From Streptomyces hygroscopicus (lineage in GTDB: Bacteria; Actinomycetota; Actinomycetes; Streptomycetales; Streptomycetaceae), in NCBI GenBank assembly GCA_002021875.1, contig CP018627.1, positions 6,014,001 through 6,078,000 of the forward strand: a stretch of DNA of 64,000 nucleotides. The letters are read 5' to 3'. Shown here piece after piece: positions 54,932-63,582 of the stretch. Positions within the stretch are counted from its first letter, which is position 1. Every line of letters begins with the position of its first letter. Made by a program: the position numbers and the translations under genes. The notes beneath the pieces were generated by a model. The model did not search any database and was not told the origin of the DNA. It saw nothing but the letters and a program-made list of their open reading frames with translations.

Positions 54932-56434
54932 TCAGCCGGCGAACCAGCGCACCGGGCTCGGTCGCAGGTTCTCGTAGACGTGCTTGGTCTCGCGGTATTC
55001 GTCAAGGCCCGCGGGACCGAGCTCGCGCCCGACCCCGGACTTGCCGAAACCGCCCCATTCGGCCTGCGGAAGGTAGGGGTGGTAGTCGTTGATCCACACG
55101 GTGCCGTGCCGCAGCCGGGCGGCGACGCGGCGCGCCCGCGCGGTGTCGGCGGACCAGACGGCGCCGGCCAGTCCGTACTCCGTGTCATTGGCGAGTGTGA
55201 CGGCCTCGTCCTCGGTTTGGAAGGACTCGACGGTCAGAATCGGCCCAAACGTTTCCTCCCGCACCACCCGCATCTCGCGGTGACACTGGTCGAGCACGGT
55301 CGGGAGATAGAAGTAACCGGTGGCCGGGCGGACCTCGTTGGGCTCCGGCTGCTTGCCGCCGCACCGCAGCAGGGCGCCCTCCTCCAGGGCGGACGCCACA
55401 TACGCCTCGGTCTTGTCCAACTGCTGGGCCGAGACCAGCGGACCGCATTCGACACCGTCCTCGGTGCCGCGGCCCAGCTTGATCTTCTCCGCGCGGCGGG
55501 CCAGCTCGGCCACGAACCGCTCGCGCACCGACTCCTCGATGATCAGCCGGGCACCGGCGGAGCAGACCTGACCGCTGTGGATGAAGGCGGCGTTCAGGGC
55601 CTGGTCGACGGCGGTGTCAAAGCCCTCGGCGGTGGCGCAGGCGTCGGCGAAGACCACATTGGGGTTCTTGCCGCCGAGCTCCAGCGCGACCTTCTTGACC
55701 GTCGGCGCGGCGGCCTGGGCGACCTTGGTGCCGCTGATCAGCCCGCCGGTGAAGGAGACCAGGTCCACATCGGGGTGCTCGGACAGCCGGGCGCCCACGG
55801 GGTCGCCCGTGCCGGTGACCAGGTTGGCCACCCCGGCCGGCAGCCCGGCCTCGGCCAGCAGCCGCACCAGATGGACGGTGGACAGCGGGGTCACCTCGCT
55901 GGGCTTGATCACAAAGGTGTTCCCGGCGACCAGCGCCGGGGCGATCTTCCAGCTGGCCTGGAGCAGCGGATAGTTCCAGGGGGTGATCATCGCGCAGACG
56001 CCGACCGGCTCATGGACCACGACGCTGTGCACATCGGGGGTACCCGCGTCGATGACCCGCCCGGCGGACTCGCCCGCGGCCAGGTCGGCGAAGTAGCGGA
56101 AGGCGTTGGTCACGTCGTCGACGTCGACCCGCCCCTCCTCCAGGGTCTTGCCGGTGTCACGGCTCTCGATGAGCGCGATCGTCTCGCGGTCGCGCTGCAG
56201 CAGCTCGGCGACGCGGCGCAGCAGCGCCGCCCGCTCGGCCACCGGCGTCCCGGGCCAGGGGCCCTGGTCGAAGGCGCGGCGCGCGGCCGCGACCGCCGCG
56301 TCGGTGTCCTCGAGGCCACCCTCGGCGACGACGGCGAGGGTCTTGGCGTCCGCGGGGTCGAGAACCTCCCGCTGCGCCCCGGACGCGGCTGCCTGCCACA
56401 CCCCGTCCACATGAATGGTCTCGACTGCCGCCAC
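54932..56434 (-). CDS. betaine aldehyde dehydrogenase
   Basis: A 500-residue NAD(P)-dependent aldehyde dehydrogenase converting betaine aldehyde to glycine betaine. Motifs: ITPWNYPLLQASWKIAPAL, SFTGGLISGTKV, the general base Glu in ALELGGKNPN, the nucleophile Cys in FIHSGQVCSAGAR and EETFGPILTVESF. The start is GTG at 56434 with GGAAGG upstream, itself inside a long leader hairpin. It is the first gene of the five-gene choline/betaine operon. Substrate is assigned from context and subfamily likeness. Confidence 0.92.
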   Translation of the reverse strand: MAAVETIHVDGVWQAAASGAQREVLDPADAKTLAVVAEGGLEDTDAAVAAARRAFDQGPWPGTPVAERAALLRRVAELLQRDRETIALIESRDTGKTLEEGRVDVDDVTNAFRYFADLAAGESAGRVIDAGTPDVHSVVVHEPVGVCAMITPWNYPLLQASWKIAPALVAGNTFVIKPSEVTPLSTVHLVRLLAEAGLPAGVANLVTGTGDPVGARLSEHPDVDLVSFTGGLISGTKVAQAAAPTVKKVALELGGKNPNVVFADACATAEGFDTAVDQALNAAFIHSGQVCSAGARLIIEESVRERFVAELARRAEKIKLGRGTEDGVECGPLVSAQQLDKTEAYVASALEEGALLRCGGKQPEPNEVRPATGYFYLPTVLDQCHREMRVVREETFGPILTVESFQTEDEAVTLANDTEYGLAGAVWSADTARARRVAARLRHGTVWINDYHPYLPQAEWGGFGKSGVGRELGPAGLDEYRETKHVYENLRPSPVRWFAG

Positions 56435-56443
56435 GTGAATTCT

Positions 56444-56517
56444 GCCTTCCGGTTCTGCGAACTTTGCCGCTGGTCCAAGCCAGCAACATGGACCCCTAAC
56501 CGGAAGGCGGGAACCTA
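56444..56517 (-). promoter_or_regulatory. promoter and RBS-covering hairpin of the betaine operon
   Basis: GCCTTCCGGTT (56444-56454) and AACCGGAAGGC (56498-56508) are perfect 11-bp arms; inside them GGTCCA (56472-56477) pairs with TGGACC (56489-56494). The strand nearer the gene contains the GGAAGG ribosome binding site of the aldehyde dehydrogenase. TAGGTT (56517-56512 on the minus strand) is a likely -10. It could be a translational switch or a wide operator. Confidence 0.55.
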
Positions 56518-56636
56518 TGCGCGATTCGCAAGAGAAAGTGGGCCGGCTCACGTGATCCGAAGGCGGAACCGGCCTCCCCGGTCATGATCGGCCGATCTGT
56601 CAAGAGCTGGTGCACGTCGATCGGTGTCAGGAGGCT

Positions 56637-56722
56637 GCCAGGAGCCCGCGGTAGGCGGTCCCGGTGTGGGAGGCCGTGCGGTAGGCAGCCGGCGTCAGGA
56701 AGCCGTGCAGTAGGCGGTCGGG
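56637..56722. repeat. degenerate copies of a gene 3' end
   Basis: Three roughly 29-bp units (starting near 56637, 56666 and 56695) share GTAGGCGGTC or GTAGGCAGCC cores. The last is the 3' end of the gene at 56695 (codons for CPTAYCTAS and stop). The other two lie downstream, so the coding tail seems to have been duplicated beyond the stop codon. Confidence 0.7.
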
Positions 56723-57516
56723 CAGAAGGTGTCCACCGCCGCCTGGTGGACCTCCCGCTCCTCCGCCCGGTCCCCGGAGGGGCCGATCACCAGCACCGCG
56801 TACATCGTGCCGTCGGGGGCGGCGAAGCGGCGGTCGAGTATCCGGCGGTGGCCGTCGCTCTTGGACTGGTACGTGTATTCGAGCTGTGCCGGGTCCGTGG
56901 CGGCCGAGCCCAGCCGGGTGAGGGCGATCTGCTCGTAGTCGCGGTGGGTGGAGGCGATCCGCTCGGCCTCCTGGGCGGACTCGTACGGCGTCGACTCGGG
57001 GCCGTGCAGCTCGAAGACCTGGATCACGGTGCTGTCGTCGGGCGAGGTGTAGTAGACGCTGGGGCCCTCGGTCGTCCGCCGCCATCCGTCCGGGACCGCG
57101 AGGTGGTATCCGGCGGGGTCTTCCTGGGTGCTGTAGCCCGCGGGCGGGGCGGCGCCGGTCAGAGACGGGGAGGACGGGGTACCGAAGGGCGTCGCGGACG
57201 GGGACGCCCCGGTCGGCGGGTCCGTGGGGAGATCGGCCGGAAGACCGGTGGGCCCACCGGTCTCGGGACCGGGCGAGGGATAGAGATCGCTCGGCTGGGA
57301 GACCTCCGCGCTCGGCGTGGCCGTGGGGCTCTCTTGGTCCCACGGCAGCGGCCCCGCCTGATGGCGGGAGGTGCCGTCGCCACCGAAGGCCACCCATCCG
57401 GAAAACGCGATCCCCCCGACCAGGAAGATCGTCACCGCCAACGCCCGCAGTGCCCGCCGGGCGTCCTGCCCAGGCCCTCCCGGCCCTCCCGGCACTCCCC
57501 CGTCATGCATGCTCAT
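56695..57516 (-). CDS. membrane-anchored protein with kinase-sensor-like domain, paralogue 1
   Basis: A 273-residue single-pass membrane protein: short cytoplasmic head, membrane helix (about residues 24-44), Pro/Thr/Ser-rich linker (45-130) and a compact outer domain (about 135-273). The outer domain (GYHLAVPDGWRR, VYYTSPDDSTVIQVFEL, YEQIALTRLG, LEYTYQSK, RRILDRRFAAPDGTMYAVLV) resembles the extracellular region of some Streptomyces Ser/Thr kinases. The extreme C-terminus is FCPTAYCTAS. It is similar to the next upstream gene product. Function unknown; ATG at 57516 with GGGGGGA. Confidence 0.75.
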   Translation of the reverse strand: MSMHDGGVPGGPGGPGQDARRALRALAVTIFLVGGIAFSGWVAFGGDGTSRHQAGPLPWDQESPTATPSAEVSQPSDLYPSPGPETGGPTGLPADLPTDPPTGASPSATPFGTPSSPSLTGAAPPAGYSTQEDPAGYHLAVPDGWRRTTEGPSVYYTSPDDSTVIQVFELHGPESTPYESAQEAERIASTHRDYEQIALTRLGSAATDPAQLEYTYQSKSDGHRRILDRRFAAPDGTMYAVLVIGPSGDRAEEREVHQAAVDTFCPTAYCTAS

Positions 57517-57728
57517 CTATCCCCCCGATAGTGGAACTCTGCTCCCCTAAGCCGACAAGCCGCGCCGACCGACATCGGTGTACCCGGTTCGAGGGCCGCC
57601 CCACCCTCCGTCACCCCACCGATACGGATATGTCGCCTTAACCGTGCCGTCCTGTGCCTGCCACTGCCTGCCGCCGGTCGTGCCCGCGCCGGCTGCCACA
57701 GATCGTGCCCGCCGCCCCCTGCCCCCCG

Positions 57729-58523
57729 TCAGGTGGCTGGGCAGTAGGCGGTGGGGCAGAAGGAAGCCAGCACGATGCGCTGCCGCTCCCGCTGCTGCGG
57801 CCAGTCGTCGGCCGGGCCCGCGACCAGCACCGCGTACTGCACCTGGTCCGGGCCGGTGAAGGCACGGTCGAGTATTCGGCGCGGGCCGTACTTGGCGCTG
57901 CGGTAGCCGTACTCCAGCTCCGCGTCCGCGTCATCGCCGGGGCCGAGCCGCTTCAGCTCGTACCGCTGGTAGTCGGGGTTCTTCTTGAGCCCCGTCTCCG
58001 CCTGGCGCAGCGCCTCGTACGGGGTGACGTCGGGCTCGGTCAGCGCGAAGACCTGGATCAGGCTGCTCGCGTCGGACGACTCGTAGAACACCCCGGTATC
58101 ACGCTTGACCCGCTGCCAGCCCCTGGGCACATCCAGCCGGAACCCCTCCGCGTCGGTGGTGCGCGCATAGTCCGCCGGCGGCTCCTGCGGGCTGTCCGTG
58201 GACACCGACGGCGGCGCCGAGGTCGTCTCCGAGAACGGCCCCGACGGCATCACCGAGGGCTGCTCGGTCGACGGTGACCAGGACGAGGCCGAGGGCGAAC
58301 CGCCGTCCGCCCCGGGCTTGTCATCCCCGCCGCCCGACACCAACTTCCAGGCGCCGACGCCGATCCCGCCGACCAGCACCACGGCGAGTACCGCCAGAAG
58401 CACCGTGCCCAGATGCGGATTGGGTGGTCTTCGGCCCGGGGCCGGCGGCTCCGCGCCCTCGCCCACCCAACGCTGGGCCTCCTCGTTCCATCGACGGCCC
58501 CCCTCGCCGCCCGGTGTGCTCAT
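57729..58523 (-). CDS. membrane-anchored protein with kinase-sensor-like domain, paralogue 2
   Basis: A 264-residue protein with the same plan as paralogue 1: cytoplasmic head (RRWNEEAQRWVGEGAEPP, Trp-rich), membrane helix (about residues 38-60), Ser/Pro linker, and outer domain (GFRLDVPRGWQRVKRDTG, VFYESSDASSLIQVFAL, YELKRLGPGDD, RRILDRAFTGPDQVQYAVLV). It also ends FCPTAYC, then PAT. It begins one base after the stop of the small GDHN gene (TGAG-ATG), so it belongs to that operon. The 212-bp gap to paralogue 1 may hold a terminator or second promoter, none clear. Confidence 0.75.
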   Translation of the reverse strand: MSTPGGEGGRRWNEEAQRWVGEGAEPPAPGRRPPNPHLGTVLLAVLAVVLVGGIGVGAWKLVSGGGDDKPGADGGSPSASSWSPSTEQPSVMPSGPFSETTSAPPSVSTDSPQEPPADYARTTDAEGFRLDVPRGWQRVKRDTGVFYESSDASSLIQVFALTEPDVTPYEALRQAETGLKKNPDYQRYELKRLGPGDDADAELEYGYRSAKYGPRRILDRAFTGPDQVQYAVLVAGPADDWPQQRERQRIVLASFCPTAYCPAT

Positions 58524-58524
58524 C

Positions 58525-58989
58525 TCAGCCGCCCAGGAGCGCGCCGACCGCCTGTCCGACGGCGACGCCGGAGGCGAGCATGCCGACGCTGGCGCTGGCG
58601 TCCTGCAACATCACCCGGATCCTGGCAAGTCGGCCGGCCCCGGCCCGGCCGGTGCGCTGGATCTCGTCCTGGGCCTGGTCCAGTTCATCGGAGAGCGCGC
58701 CGACCTCCGGGCTCGGGACCACCCGCCGCAGATCGTCGGTGAGCTGTCGAACGGCCTCCAGCAGCTCCTGATAGGCGGGGTCGCAAGGGGCCTCCCCCTG
58801 CCGTCCGTTCACAATGTGGTTGTGGTCGCCGATGCCGACGGCGCTGCCGCTCACCTTGCCGAACCTGATGTCGCCGAATGTGCGCCCGCCGCCGCCCGCC
58901 GGGCCCGCGCCGCCACCGCTCGCGCCGGCCGTGTGGTCCGCACCGCCGCCGCCCACGCCGCTGCCGTCCTCCGTGTCAGCCATCGCCAT
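58525..58989 (-). CDS. small protein with GDHN motif and helical C-terminus
   Basis: A 154-residue protein. The N-terminal 40 residues are Gly-rich; residues about 40-65 hold TFGDIRFGKVSGSAVGIGDH then NHIVNG, a turn-rich motif shared with the C-terminus of its neighbour. Residues about 75-140 are predicted helical (LLEAVRQLTDDLRRVV, ALSDELDQAQDEIQR), and the tail ASVGMLASGVAVGQAVGALL is hydrophobic. The ATG at 58989 has GGGAGG 6 bases upstream and overlaps the end of the large membrane protein gene by 14 bp. I do not recognise a characterised family. Confidence 0.7.
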   Translation of the reverse strand: MAMADTEDGSGVGGGGADHTAGASGGGAGPAGGGGRTFGDIRFGKVSGSAVGIGDHNHIVNGRQGEAPCDPAYQELLEAVRQLTDDLRRVVPSPEVGALSDELDQAQDEIQRTGRAGAGRLARIRVMLQDASASVGMLASGVAVGQAVGALLGG

Positions 58990-60805
58990 GGCCGCCTCCC
59001 GCTCCGTTGGTTCCGGTGGTGTTGCTGATGGTGTTGTGGTCACCGAAGCCGAAGGCGCTGTTCGCCGCGGACTCGATGAAGACCCCGCCGCCGCTCACAT
59101 TGATGACCTTCTGCTCGAACTCGCCGGTCTCCCAGCCGGCTTCGTCGAGCGCCCTTCGCACGCCGTTGGCCACCCGGTCCTCGACGCTTTTCAGATAGCG
59201 GCTGACATCCATCTCCTGGAAGAGCGATGCGCCTGCGTCGCTGCCCAGCTCCCGCACCGAGATCCAGGGCCCGTCGGGGATGGCCGCCTCATAACCCCCC
59301 GCGTACATCCGCCAGACGAAGGCGGCCGAGCGGAAGGCGTGGATGACCGCCTGGCCCGCCGCCGTCGGCGTCCGCCCGAGCGCCCAGACCGCCTTGCCCG
59401 GCAGTCCGCCGCGACGGTGGGAGTCGGAGAGCCGGTCGACCGCCCGGAAGTCCGGGCGGATCGGGCGCAGCACATGGGGGGCGAACTCCAGCATCAGCAT
59501 GCCGCCTTGCGTATGCACCCGCACGAAGACGGTGGTGACCACCTCTTCCCGCCATGCGCCGACGCGGATGCGCAGAAAGTGCCGGCGGACCTCTCCGCCC
59601 TCCTCGACGGCCTCCGCCCGCTCCCGCGCGAAGTCCGCCTCGCCATACGGCACGAAGGAGCGGCTCCGCAATCCGGTGACCTTGAGGAAGACGCATTCGT
59701 CGAGCTCCAGGCCGCGCAGCCGGTCGCGGCTGGCGGCGGCGGGCCGGGCGGTGCCCTGGACGGAGGCGGTGCCCTGGGCGGAGGAGGCGCCTTGGACGGA
59801 GGAGGCGCCCTGAGTCGAGGAGGTGCGCAACTTCTCGACCAGCGGCCGGATCCGCTCCAGGATCACGCGGTTGTCCAGCGGCGCCGGATCGCCGCCCTCG
59901 CGCGGCCGCAGCTCGACGGCGAGGGTCCAGGTGTCATGGGCGGCGCCCGCGCCGAGGAAGGGGTGCCGATCGTGGTAGAGGATCACCGGTGAGTGCTGCT
60001 CGCGGCGGATCAGGGCCCGCACTCGCTGGAAGCGCCCGCCCTCGAACCGCTCCGCGGGGTCCGCGGCGGGGTCGGCGAAGGTCTCCGGCTCCAGGTCGGT
60101 GGCCAGCACTCGGGCCACATGCTCACGGTGCAGGGCGACCGCGGTGGCCATCATGGCCGGGATCACCAGCGCGAACCAGGCGGCGCTGGTGTCCGGCCCG
60201 GTCGCCAGGGCCGGTGCGAAGCCCTGCAGCCCGCTCGTAGCGGGCTCGCCCGTGAACGCCTGCGTCAGGGCAGAGACCGCATAGGACAGCAGGATCAGGC
60301 AGCCGAGCACCCGCAGCACCGCGGCCGCCCGCCGCCGGGTGACGGTGACCCCGTCGGCCCCGGGATAGTCGGCGCGGAAGGGGCCCATGGCGCCGCCTCT
60401 GGCCCAGGCCGCCAGCAGAAGCAGCGCACAGGACAGCAGGAACAGATAGAAGAACCCCTGCGCCAGCAGAAAGTCCAGCACCCATAAGGACACCAGCAGC
60501 GCGGTCCAGCATGCCTCCAGACGGCGCGCGCGCAGCGCGTGCGCGAGCACCCGGGCCGCGTCGATGCCCAGCGAGGGCGCCACGGCCCGCTCCTCGTGGA
60601 CATACAGCTCGTCCAGGACCGTGTCCCGGAAGTCGTCGTCCAGATAGGCGCCCGCGCACAGCAGCCGGGTCGCCTCGCTGGTGGCGTAGGGGGACGCATC
60701 GTCGGCGGCGCGAGGAGAGGGGACGCCAGGTAAAGGCTCCGGCCGCGGCTGCGGCAGATGAGACGAGTGGCCGCCCAAAGAATGATCATCGCGCGTATTG
60801 GCCAT
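58976..60805 (-). CDS. large multi-domain membrane protein of unknown function
   Basis: A 609-residue protein. A cytoplasmic N-terminal region (about residues 40-105, YATSEATRLLCAGAYLDDDFRD) precedes four membrane helices in two pairs (about 110-145 and 170-245). A soluble domain (about 255-560) with a SSVQGASSAQGTASVQGTA-like repeat insert includes ELDECVFLKVTGLRSRSF and a region with MLMLEFAPHVLRPIRPDFRA. The end has ISVRELGSDAGASLFQEMDV, VINVSGGGVFIESAANSAFG, then FGDHNTISNTTG, the motif shared with the next gene. It heads a four-gene operon. I know no function. Confidence 0.75.
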   Translation of the reverse strand: MANTRDDHSLGGHSSHLPQPRPEPLPGVPSPRAADDASPYATSEATRLLCAGAYLDDDFRDTVLDELYVHEERAVAPSLGIDAARVLAHALRARRLEACWTALLVSLWVLDFLLAQGFFYLFLLSCALLLLAAWARGGAMGPFRADYPGADGVTVTRRRAAAVLRVLGCLILLSYAVSALTQAFTGEPATSGLQGFAPALATGPDTSAAWFALVIPAMMATAVALHREHVARVLATDLEPETFADPAADPAERFEGGRFQRVRALIRREQHSPVILYHDRHPFLGAGAAHDTWTLAVELRPREGGDPAPLDNRVILERIRPLVEKLRTSSTQGASSVQGASSAQGTASVQGTARPAAASRDRLRGLELDECVFLKVTGLRSRSFVPYGEADFARERAEAVEEGGEVRRHFLRIRVGAWREEVVTTVFVRVHTQGGMLMLEFAPHVLRPIRPDFRAVDRLSDSHRRGGLPGKAVWALGRTPTAAGQAVIHAFRSAAFVWRMYAGGYEAAIPDGPWISVRELGSDAGASLFQEMDVSRYLKSVEDRVANGVRRALDEAGWETGEFEQKVINVSGGGVFIESAANSAFGFGDHNTISNTTGTNGAGGGHGDG

Positions 60806-60940: not shown

Positions 60941-61987
<1,047 letters not shown>

Positions 61988-62211: not shown

Positions 62212-63300
62212 TCACCCCTGGGCGCCGGGAGCCGTGCAGGCGCGCGTACCGCCCGTGAGAGTGGCGCAGGCGGTGGTCCGCGCGGTGGCGTCCACCGAGA
62301 TCATCTTGGTGTAGGCGTCGCCGTCGGCGCCGACCCTGCTGTTCTGCGCGCGGGCCGCGCCGCCCCTCGCGCCCGGCGCCTTGATCTGGATCACATCGTC
62401 CGGAGCCGCCCGGGTGATACGGGCCCAGGCCGCCCGGCAGGTCTTGCTGTAGCGGACCTCGACATACGCGGTGCCGACGGTGACGTTCGCGGTGGTCGTC
62501 GCGGCTGCGCCGCACCCCATGGCCTGCGGATCCTGACCGGTGCAGTCCTCCCCGGCGCACTTCACGCCCGCCGGCAGCTGACGCGCGCTGGTGGTCGGTG
62601 CGGTGCTCGGCTTCTCCCCGCGCTTCTCGCCGTCGCCGCCCGCATCGATCAGCAGGACGGCGCCGGCGACGAGTAAGAGCGCGCCGACGAGCCCCCCGGC
62701 GAACAGCGCGACGCGCTTCCGCCCCGTCCCGGAAGGCGAGGGCGGCCCCGACGGGAAGGTTGACGGTGACGGAGCGGACAAGGCGGGCGACGGCGGTTCG
62801 GAGGAGCCCGGTGCCCGCTCGGCCGGCGGCGCCGCGGGAGCCGAGAACACCGGAGCCGTCGCGACCAACGGCTGCTCGGGTTCCGGCGGTTCGACACTCG
62901 ACCGCCCCTTCCCCGGATGACGGCCGTTCTTCCGGGCGCCCACCCCCTGCGCCGCCGGGTCGAACTGCTCGATGGCGGCGCGTGCCTGCGCGACGCTGAT
63001 GGCCTCCATCGTGACGTCGTGGCGCATCTCGGAGCGGCTCCAGGCCCGCTCCGCCAGCTCCCACAGCGTGCTGAGGTGATGGACATCGGCGCCCGTGGCC
63101 TCGGCCAGGGCCTCCACCGCGCCCTGCGGGGGCAGCAGCCGTCCGCCCAGATAGCGCTCCCATGAACTCTTGCTGTAGCCGGTGCGGTCGGCGACGGCGA
63201 CGACGCTCAGCCCGCTGCGCTCGACGATCGTGCGCAACTGGCCGGTGAACTCCTGTACCTGCGGATCGAGTCCCTCCGGCAGGTCCCTCCAACGAGGCAT
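62212..63300 (-). CDS. HTH membrane protein with DUF2690 domain
   Basis: A 362-residue single-pass membrane protein. Residues about 10-75 form an XRE-type HTH (LRTIVERSGLSVVAVADRTG, YSKSSWERYLGGR). A Pro/Ser/Ala-rich stretch follows, a membrane helix is at about 197-218, and the outer DUF2690 domain (about 245-362) has paired cysteines (CAGEDCTGQDPQAMGC, TCRAAW, TTACATLTGGTRAC). The design links an outside domain to a cytoplasmic DNA-binding-like head. The ATG at 63300 has GGGGAGG. Function unknown. Confidence 0.85.
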   Translation of the reverse strand: MPRWRDLPEGLDPQVQEFTGQLRTIVERSGLSVVAVADRTGYSKSSWERYLGGRLLPPQGAVEALAEATGADVHHLSTLWELAERAWSRSEMRHDVTMEAISVAQARAAIEQFDPAAQGVGARKNGRHPGKGRSSVEPPEPEQPLVATAPVFSAPAAPPAERAPGSSEPPSPALSAPSPSTFPSGPPSPSGTGRKRVALFAGGLVGALLLVAGAVLLIDAGGDGEKRGEKPSTAPTTSARQLPAGVKCAGEDCTGQDPQAMGCGAAATTTANVTVGTAYVEVRYSKTCRAAWARITRAAPDDVIQIKAPGARGGAARAQNSRVGADGDAYTKMISVDATARTTACATLTGGTRACTAPGAQG

Positions 63301-63582
63301 TGCCTCCCCCTGTCCCCCCGCACGTGCCTGTGTCAATCTCCCGCGCTACGGCCCCTGTTGGCGCCTCCGGGCCCCGAACTGACTACCCAAAGGGACGCCT
63401 TGCCCCAGGATGTCAGCTCCTCGGGTGGGGGCGCATCGGAGCATTTCGTGCACCGGTGTGTACTCCGCCGCGCCCGGCTCGTCGTTGCACAGCCGAGACC
63501 TCGTGCTGGAACGGTCACTTCCGCGCCACAGGATTCTGCCGGTCATTGATCCGGCACAGTCCACACACAACCCTGATTACCA

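What the first reader, a model, noticed from the sequence alone, without database searches (positions are those of the whole stretch)
56695..60805. Four-gene operon of unknown function: large membrane protein, GDHN protein, two sensor-like paralogues
The first three genes overlap or are one base apart, so they are coupled; the fourth follows on the same strand and duplicates the third. None matches a characterised system I know. A multi-pass protein, a small helical protein with the same terminal motif, and two anchored proteins with kinase-sensor-like outer domains suggest an envelope signalling or conflict complex.
Basis: inference. Interest (0 to 1): 0.75.

Follow-up and report, generated by a model that had tools for sequence, protein, structure and literature searches.

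The report
Membrane receptors with effector-matching sticky motifs
In Streptomyces and other actinobacteria, a family of predicted membrane proteins ends in a short sequence that matches, locus by locus, the start of the protein encoded next door (in some relatives an immune-type TIR or nucleosidase domain), so the two would likely signal by stacking like on like, perhaps as a prion-like switch that works without the usual NLR receptor.

Summary
The four ORFs are real. A (58976-60805) is a predicted multi-pass membrane protein; B (58525-58989) is small and predicted helical; C and D are paralogues with one predicted anchor each and a possibly PsbP-like outer domain. A-B-C is the conserved unit: B follows A in 80 of 80 loci fetched (79 titled Streptomyces), and a C-type gene follows B in 73 of 80. 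D is a second copy in 12 of 80.

The shared 'GDHN' motif is the key. A's C-terminal and B's N-terminal motifs change together between lineages and match within each locus (0 of 20,000 permutations reach the observed match). Neighbouring segments do not match, and codon identity argues against recent gene conversion in most loci. Among 69 loci of distant A relatives, 9 carry nucleosidase, 6 TIR, 3 EAD1 and 14 DUF5955-like matched partners; 24 partners have other or no known domains, one is a remnant, and 12 loci show no match.

Best reading: A is an NLR-free membrane receptor or hub that likely recruits and triggers a motif-matched effector by homotypic beta-stacking. Pair-matching is shown; binding, amyloid nature, triggering, ligand and B's toxicity are inferred. 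Similarity of the window motif to a BASS3/RHIM-like reference peptide was tested and is not significant.

The parts
58976..60805 (-). A: predicted multi-pass membrane protein, 609 aa, proposed receptor or hub
   Evidence: conserved family without Pfam/NCBIfam name; hydropathy and AlphaFold (mean pLDDT 80.9) give membrane helices, then a large alpha/beta domain
59021..59107 (-). A's C-terminal matching motif (VINVSGGGVFIESAANSAFGFGDHNTISN)
   Evidence: co-varies with B's motif within loci; two weakly predicted strands
58525..58989 (-). B: small protein, 154 aa, proposed effector; overlaps A by 14 nt
   Evidence: directly after A in 80 of 80 fetched loci
58807..58875 (-). B's N-terminal matching motif (GDIRFGKVSGSAVGIGDHNHIVN)
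58528..58779 (-). B's four-helix domain with conserved C-terminal GxLASGVAVGQAVGALLGG
   Evidence: four helices predicted (pLDDT mostly 65-79); DUF5955-like in relatives
57729..58523 (-). C: single predicted anchor, cytosolic RWNEEAQRW motif, possibly PsbP-like outer domain
   Evidence: C-type gene after B in 73 of 80 loci
56695..57516 (-). D: paralogue of C (38% identity), clade-specific second copy, not part of the conserved unit
   Evidence: second downstream copy in 12 of 80 loci

Best explanation
A predicted multi-pass membrane protein (A) and a small protein (B), encoded by overlapping genes, carry a locus-matched motif of some 20-30 residues at A's C-terminus and near B's N-terminus, and A likely works as a membrane receptor or hub that recruits and switches on B, a predicted four-helix effector, by homotypic beta-stacking of the two motifs. 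Shown: the conserved gene order, the pair-specific matching of the motifs, its restriction to the motif, and the exchange of B for TIR, nucleosidase or EAD1 proteins in some relatives of A. Inferred: that the matched motifs bind each other, that binding is amyloid-like or solenoid stacking, that it is triggered by a signal reaching A (in this subfamily perhaps through C), and that the activated partner harms or arrests the cell as an abortive response.
For: (1) Synteny: A-B in 80 of 80, C-type gene after B in 73 of 80 fetched loci. (2) Co-variation: 85 loci, own pairs score 69.2 against 41.8 (sd 1.5) when permuted, 0 of 20,000; 26 representatives at 70% A-body identity 67.0 against 41.3, 0 of 20,000; permuting only within clades (58 representatives) 67.8 against 48.0, 0 of 20,000. 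(3) Specificity: three comparisons using segments beside the motifs are at chance (3422, 4960 and 2226 of 5000 permutations reach the observed value). (4) Selection rather than copying: codon identity at identical residues is 0.585 in 43 distant loci against 0.589 expected from codon usage. (5) Independent distant loci: 49 loci 70.7 against 37.9 and 31 non-redundant 71.5 against 38.0, 20 later loci 64.2 against 35.9, 0 of 20,000 each, with the best downstream ORF allowed in the null too. (6) Partner swap: of 56 full-length partners, PNP_UDP_1 9, CAP12-PCTIR_TIR 6, EAD1 3, DUF5955-like 14; the 4 nucleosidase partners given to PADLOC all match its PN-superfamily effector model. (7) A-family members whose tails lack the motif, e.g. 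L126 in the window's own genome, have no matching neighbour (scores 27-32).
Against: No binding, amyloid or toxicity data. The window motif is not significantly similar to a verified BASS3 peptide (A z 0.4, B z 1.6). AlphaFold leaves B's motif disordered and A's with pLDDT about 55-62. B's C-terminal helix is only marginally hydrophobic (1.63). The Streptomyces unit mostly sits at one core place, unlike a defence island. C-type genes were found in 14 of 49 distant loci, none of them the nucleosidase or EAD1 ones, so C is not needed in general (flanks were short). Only 18 of 56 partners carry a named immune-type domain; 24 have other or no Pfam matches. With only seven representatives 6 of 20,000 permutations reach the observed match. 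Some pairs match weakly (L123 score 36, L154 43, L122 44).
Confidence: 0.6

Rival explanations
1. A and B form a constitutive structural complex. The matched motifs are a static beta-solenoid clasp that holds a housekeeping envelope or osmotic-stress assembly together, with C outside the membrane; no switch or cell death is involved.
For: Fixed place between malate dehydrogenase and betaine genes in many loci; C follows in 73 of 80; no known toxin domain in B.
Against: Fast, pair-private motif change is unexpected for a static clasp; relatives of A use TIR, nucleosidase and EAD1 partners through the same arrangement.
Confidence: 0.22
2. A restrains the effector: the matched motif holds B, or the TIR or nucleosidase, inactive at the membrane, and loss of A or of contact with it sets the effector free, as in a toxin-antitoxin pair.
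For: Equally consistent with pair-specific matching and overlapping genes.
Against: In known motif-matched pairs the motif activates rather than restrains (PMC7889193, passages).
Confidence: 0.12
3. The matching is concerted evolution of two neighbouring DNA stretches by gene conversion, without functional meaning.
For: A few loci have near-identical codons (L039 16/16, L029 15/15; L139 11/11, L132 21/24). In L104 the partner is a 41-aa remnant whose end repeats A's tail.
Against: Codon identity in 43 distant loci equals the codon-usage expectation; L083 and L086 match in protein with 31% and 33% codon identity; segments beside the motif show no matching.
Confidence: 0.06

Closest known systems
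Bacterial NLR/Bell amyloid signalling pairs (BASS1-10, with RHIM-related BASS3)
   Same: Adjacent or overlapping genes whose products share a short pair-matched motif at protein ends; small helical partner; TIR domains also occur as effectors there (PMC7889193, PMC8086366, passages).
   Different: A has no NLR/NTPase domain and is membrane-embedded; the motif is at the receptor's C-terminus and the effector's N-terminus, the reverse of NLR/Bell; similarity to a BASS3 peptide is not significant for the window.
Fungal NLR/PNP_UDP pairs with PUASM motifs
   Same: A nucleosidase-type PNP_UDP effector coupled to its receptor by a matched amyloid motif (PMC9815663, passages).
   Different: Receptor is a NACHT NLR; motif at the effector's C-terminus; fungi.
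EAD-coupled conflict systems and the EACC1 two-gene system (Kaur et al. 2020)
   Same: Homotypic adaptor coupling between a core protein and swappable effectors; EAD1 itself occurs in three partners here (PMC7159879, passages and section 33; Pfam).
   Different: Coupling there is by globular EAD domains; EACC1 has a single TM helix and a caspase-type partner; A has several predicted membrane helices and no EACC1 match in Pfam.
CAP12/Pycsar TIR effectors
   Same: Partners in 6 of 14 later loci (L148, L153, L155, L160, L161, L164 by reading) belong to this Pfam family.
   Different: Here the TIR protein starts with a receptor-matched motif and is encoded beside A, not beside a nucleotide cyclase (the latter recalled).

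Membership tests
NLR/effector amyloid signalosome (BASS type) | Two adjacent genes share a short motif specific to the pair | tested here: met
NLR/effector amyloid signalosome (BASS type) | Receptor is an NLR (NB-ARC/NACHT) with the motif at its N-terminus | tested here: not met
   No NTPase family in A or in the distant A proteins scanned; motif is at the C-terminus
NLR/effector amyloid signalosome (BASS type) | Effector carries the motif at the C-terminus of a Bell domain | tested here: not met
   B's motif lies N-terminal to its helices; no Bell profile was available
NLR/effector amyloid signalosome (BASS type) | Motif forms amyloid and templates the partner | not testable with these tools
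   Needs peptides and seeding assays
RHIM / BASS3 motif | Significant similarity to a verified BASS3 motif | tested here: inconclusive
   One Frankia peptide used: window A z 0.4, B z 1.6; of five Streptomyces loci tried beside L086, best z 2.7. Single-peptide test, so weak
RHIM / BASS3 motif | Glutamine before the hydrophobic-G step (core V-Q-[IV]-G recalled) | tested here: not met
   Window has FGFGD and VGIGD: glycine, not glutamine
DUF5955 (B) | Pfam gathering score | tested here: inconclusive
   Window B 12.6 against 27.1 bits; L117 26.2 and L128 25.9; 14 of 56 partners at E<=0.01, best E 2.6e-10
PsbP-like outer domain (C) | Pfam gathering score | tested here: inconclusive
   Window C 13.6 against 23.5 bits; L083 C 23.7, just over; 4 of 21 C-type proteins at E<=0.01
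T7SS Rv3446c family (TIGR03931) | NCBIfam cut-off | tested here: not met
   C: 28.4 against 47.6 bits, E 1.8e-6
Kinase-linked sensor | Kinase or kinase-associated sensor family in C or D | tested here: not met
   No such Pfam or NCBIfam match
EACC1 two-gene system | Single-TM EACC1 protein with caspase-type partner | tested here: not met
   A has at least three hydrophobic segments and no EACC1 match; B has no caspase match. Description read in PMC7159879 section 33

The most novel reading that the evidence does not exclude
A new class of NLR-free immune receptors: membrane-embedded actinobacterial proteins that sense envelope or phage insult and fire interchangeable effectors (TIR NADases, nucleosidases, EAD1 adaptors, four-helix killers) by templating a private, fast-evolving prion-like motif shared only by each receptor-effector pair.
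Probability: 0.42. Interest if true: 0.93.

Novelty: new variant of a known kind. Interest (0 to 1): 0.84.

Why it matters
A 2021 review of amyloid signalling asks outright whether fungi and bacteria have signalling amyloids in proteins and pathways not dependent on NLRs (PMC7889193, passage read). This family is a concrete, testable candidate: an unnamed membrane protein family, frequent in Streptomyces, with dozens of naturally matched motif pairs and at least four kinds of partner. Each pair is a ready-made specificity experiment. If right, it adds a receptor class to bacterial immunity or cell-death signalling and gives many unannotated Streptomyces genes a working hypothesis.

Tried and rejected

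Counts dropped or kept: lists of homologues were capped at 120 of 1022, 120 of 133, 120 of 261 and 80 of 328. The 85-locus test left out L001 (the window again), L084 (no partner found) and L088 (partner not seen within reach), and kept both copies of a duplicated S. apocyni stretch (L033, L035). The 69 distant loci are L097-L145 and L147-L166; L097, L099, L108 and L109 are second fetches of L083, L084, L085 and L086, so the distant set shares three pairs with the 85. Twelve of the 69 are called without match: L099, L126, L140, L141, L143, L144, L158, L159, L162, L163, L165, L166; L140 was probably read in a wrong frame, and these calls are by score and eye. One partner (L104) is a remnant. 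Downstream DNA was only about 1.5 kb in most of L097-L125, and the genome search scored only a few candidates per genome, so absences are soft.
Full report
WHAT IS THERE. The window lies in one 12.0-Mb contig; the nearest relatives of A come from Streptomyces such as S. yatensis, S. antimycoticus and S. violaceusniger. On the - strand, between a malate dehydrogenase gene (60941-61930, Pfam) and an aldehyde dehydrogenase gene (54932-56551, named betB from recall), lie A (58976-60805), B (58525-58989), C (57729-58523) and D (56695-57516). A and B overlap by 14 nt, B and C are one base apart, C and D 212 bases (coordinates). None has a Pfam or NCBIfam match above cut-off or a PADLOC match.

SYNTENY. 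A profile of A found 328 related stretches in the species-level genome collection; the best 80 loci were kept, 79 titled Streptomyces and one 'Actinobacteria bacterium'. B lies directly downstream of A in 80 of 80. A C-type gene lies downstream of B in 73 of 80; in six of the seven others (L026, L030, L049, L053, L060, L061) the contig ends within 0.5 kb of B, and in L070 none was detected. A second copy (D) is downstream in 12 of 80, all with an A at least 73% identical to the window's; ten loci have a C-type gene upstream of A instead or as well. The malate dehydrogenase gene was found in 71 of 80 and the aldehyde dehydrogenase gene in 50 of 80 loci. Among relatives 31 of 41 genomes had some A-family match, and 14 of 25 of the same genus had one with E below 1e-60. 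In a class-wide sample 51 of 296 genomes (19 of 114 genera) had a match, some only to a motif-less paralogue; in a phylum-wide sample, with a narrower query, 7 of 246. Named relatives of one distant A (L132) include Nocardiopsis and Kitasatospora.

THE MOTIF CO-VARIES. Reading A's end against B's beginning locus by locus shows that the motif differs much between lineages but the two copies in one locus change together. Examples, A then B: window SAFGFGDHNTISN / SAVGIGDHNHIVN; L029 GNVTLGSHNTVTS / GNVTIGDHNTVTS; L025 GAFAFGEHGVANN / GAFAFGAHGVANN; L054 NAQGATFAVGDKSHVSSH / NAQGATFAVGDNANVTSH; L057 ISGSNNNVAAGMQNSASS / ISGSNNNVAAGSNAHAES. Across 85 loci the mean local alignment score of own pairs is 69.2 against 41.8 (sd 1.5) when partners are permuted, 0 of 20,000 permutations reaching it. 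With one representative per cluster at 70% A-body identity (26 loci) it is 67.0 against 41.3 (sd 2.5), 0 of 20,000. With permutation only inside clades (58 representatives) it is 67.8 against 48.0 (sd 1.6), 0 of 20,000. With seven representatives, 6 of 20,000 reach it. The own partner is the single best in only 18 of 85 loci of the full set, since close relatives share motifs, and in 12 of 26 representatives. The signal is confined to the motif: three comparisons using segments beside it are at chance.

NOT SIMPLY DNA COPYING. If one motif-coding stretch had overwritten the other, shared residues would share codons. At identical residues codon identity is 0.698 within loci, 0.659 between loci and 0.589 expected from codon usage (84 loci), and 0.585 in 43 distant loci. 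Some loci do look copied (L039, L029, L139, L132, and the remnant partner in L104), so occasional conversion probably occurs, but it does not explain the rest.

DISTANT RELATIVES SWAP THE EFFECTOR. With a wider A alignment I looked at 69 loci of distant A relatives. In 56 a full-length downstream ORF was taken as partner; one more is a remnant; 12 loci show none. In the first 43 pairs the match has a median of 31 residues and 48% identity, starts at residue 7 of the partner and ends 8 residues from A's end; some single scores are weak. Letting the null also choose the best downstream ORF, own pairs score 70.7 against 37.9 (49 loci) and 71.5 against 38.0 (31 non-redundant), and 64.2 against 35.9 (20 later loci), 0 of 20,000 each. 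Pfam places the 56 partners as PNP_UDP_1 9, CAP12/Pycsar-type TIR 6, EAD1 3, DUF5955 at E<=0.01 14, and 24 others, nearly all without a match. The 4 of 9 nucleosidase partners that I gave to PADLOC all match its PN-superfamily effector model. The pairing can be striking: L133 GATFHGGRHSFSGSTFGSGDIHHHTPP in A, GATFHGGRHSFSDSTFGSGDIHHHTPP in the nucleosidase; L153 NNSFVNGNNNTTNSGTQN in A, NNSFVTGDNNTTNSGTQN in the TIR protein. A-family members whose tails lack the motif, one of them in the window's own genome (L126), show no such neighbour.

PROTEINS. A (620-aa form): AlphaFold mean pLDDT 80.9; long helices 94-126, 128-147, 166-196 and 217-248, a mostly well-predicted alpha/beta domain from about 268 to 570, then two weak strands in the motif. 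Hydropathy gives three clear membrane-like segments. No solved relative by sequence or Foldseek. B: N-terminus and motif are disordered in the model, followed by four helices (mean pLDDT 57.5); the conserved last helix is only marginally hydrophobic. C: a cytosolic RWNEEAQRW motif, one anchor, a Pro/Ser-rich spacer and an outer domain with a weak PsbP signal in 4 of 21 members. C-type genes were also found in 14 of 49 distant loci, none of them the nucleosidase or EAD1 loci; the later 20 loci, which hold the TIR partners, were not searched for C.

MECHANISM, WITH WHAT IS SHOWN AND INFERRED. Shown: gene coupling, pair-specific motif matching that codon data do not explain by copying, and partner exchange with immune-type domains. 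Inferred: the motifs bind homotypically as stacked beta-arches; A, held in the membrane, nucleates the stack when triggered; clustering or templating activates the partner; in the window's subfamily C may report the envelope state to A; the outcome is damage or arrest of the cell. I put about 0.85 on A and B interacting through the motif, about 0.6 on A acting upstream of B as an effector, and about 0.4 on a true amyloid or prion-like fold. These are judgements, not computed values.

COMPARISON. It works like NLR/Bell and NLR/PNP_UDP amyloid signalosomes (PMC7889193, PMC8086366, PMC9815663: passages; PMC12261475: passages and one section) but is not a member: no NLR domain was found, the motif positions are reversed, and the window motif is not significantly similar to the BASS3 peptide. 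It differs from EAD-coupled and EACC1 systems (PMC7159879, passages and section 33). Hence 'new variant of a known kind', the novelty being the receptor class.

LIMITS. All evidence is from sequence and prediction. The fixed genomic place of the Streptomyces unit leaves a housekeeping role open. What A or C senses is unknown.

Noticed in passing
own genome, G000:C1:3066856-3068262 (locus L126): A distant A-family paralogue whose tail carries no matching motif and has no matching neighbour; similar motif-less members are in L141, L143 and L144.
   Followed up: partly
L104:3159-3281 (+): Partner gene reduced to a 41-aa remnant whose end repeats A's own tail, suggesting recombination between the two motif-coding stretches.
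   Followed up: no
L099/L084: A good A relative with a motif-poor tail and no B found downstream: a possible natural case of motif decay after loss of the partner.
   Followed up: no
L111:3237-3809 (+): B-type partner that seems to carry two copies of the motif in tandem; L112-L114 look similar.
   Followed up: no
window 57729-58523 (C) and C-type proteins of many loci: Conserved cytosolic RWN-x-ET-Q-x-W motif ahead of the anchor, absent from D: a possible docking site for A or B.
   Followed up: no
L037, L048, L051, L053, L057, L060, L064, L067, L077, L078: A C-type gene lies upstream of A in these ten of 80 loci, so C-type genes occur on either side of the pair.
   Followed up: no
L139 and L145: Very divergent A relatives whose shared motifs (FGNHGIN / FGDHNQN; PFGDHNTQ / PFGTGNVQ) look closer by eye to glutamine-containing RHIM/BASS3 motifs than the window's own.
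   Followed up: no
window 62212-63336 (-): HTH_31 plus DUF2690 membrane regulator gene upstream of malate dehydrogenase; a relative was found in 65 of 80 loci.
   Followed up: no
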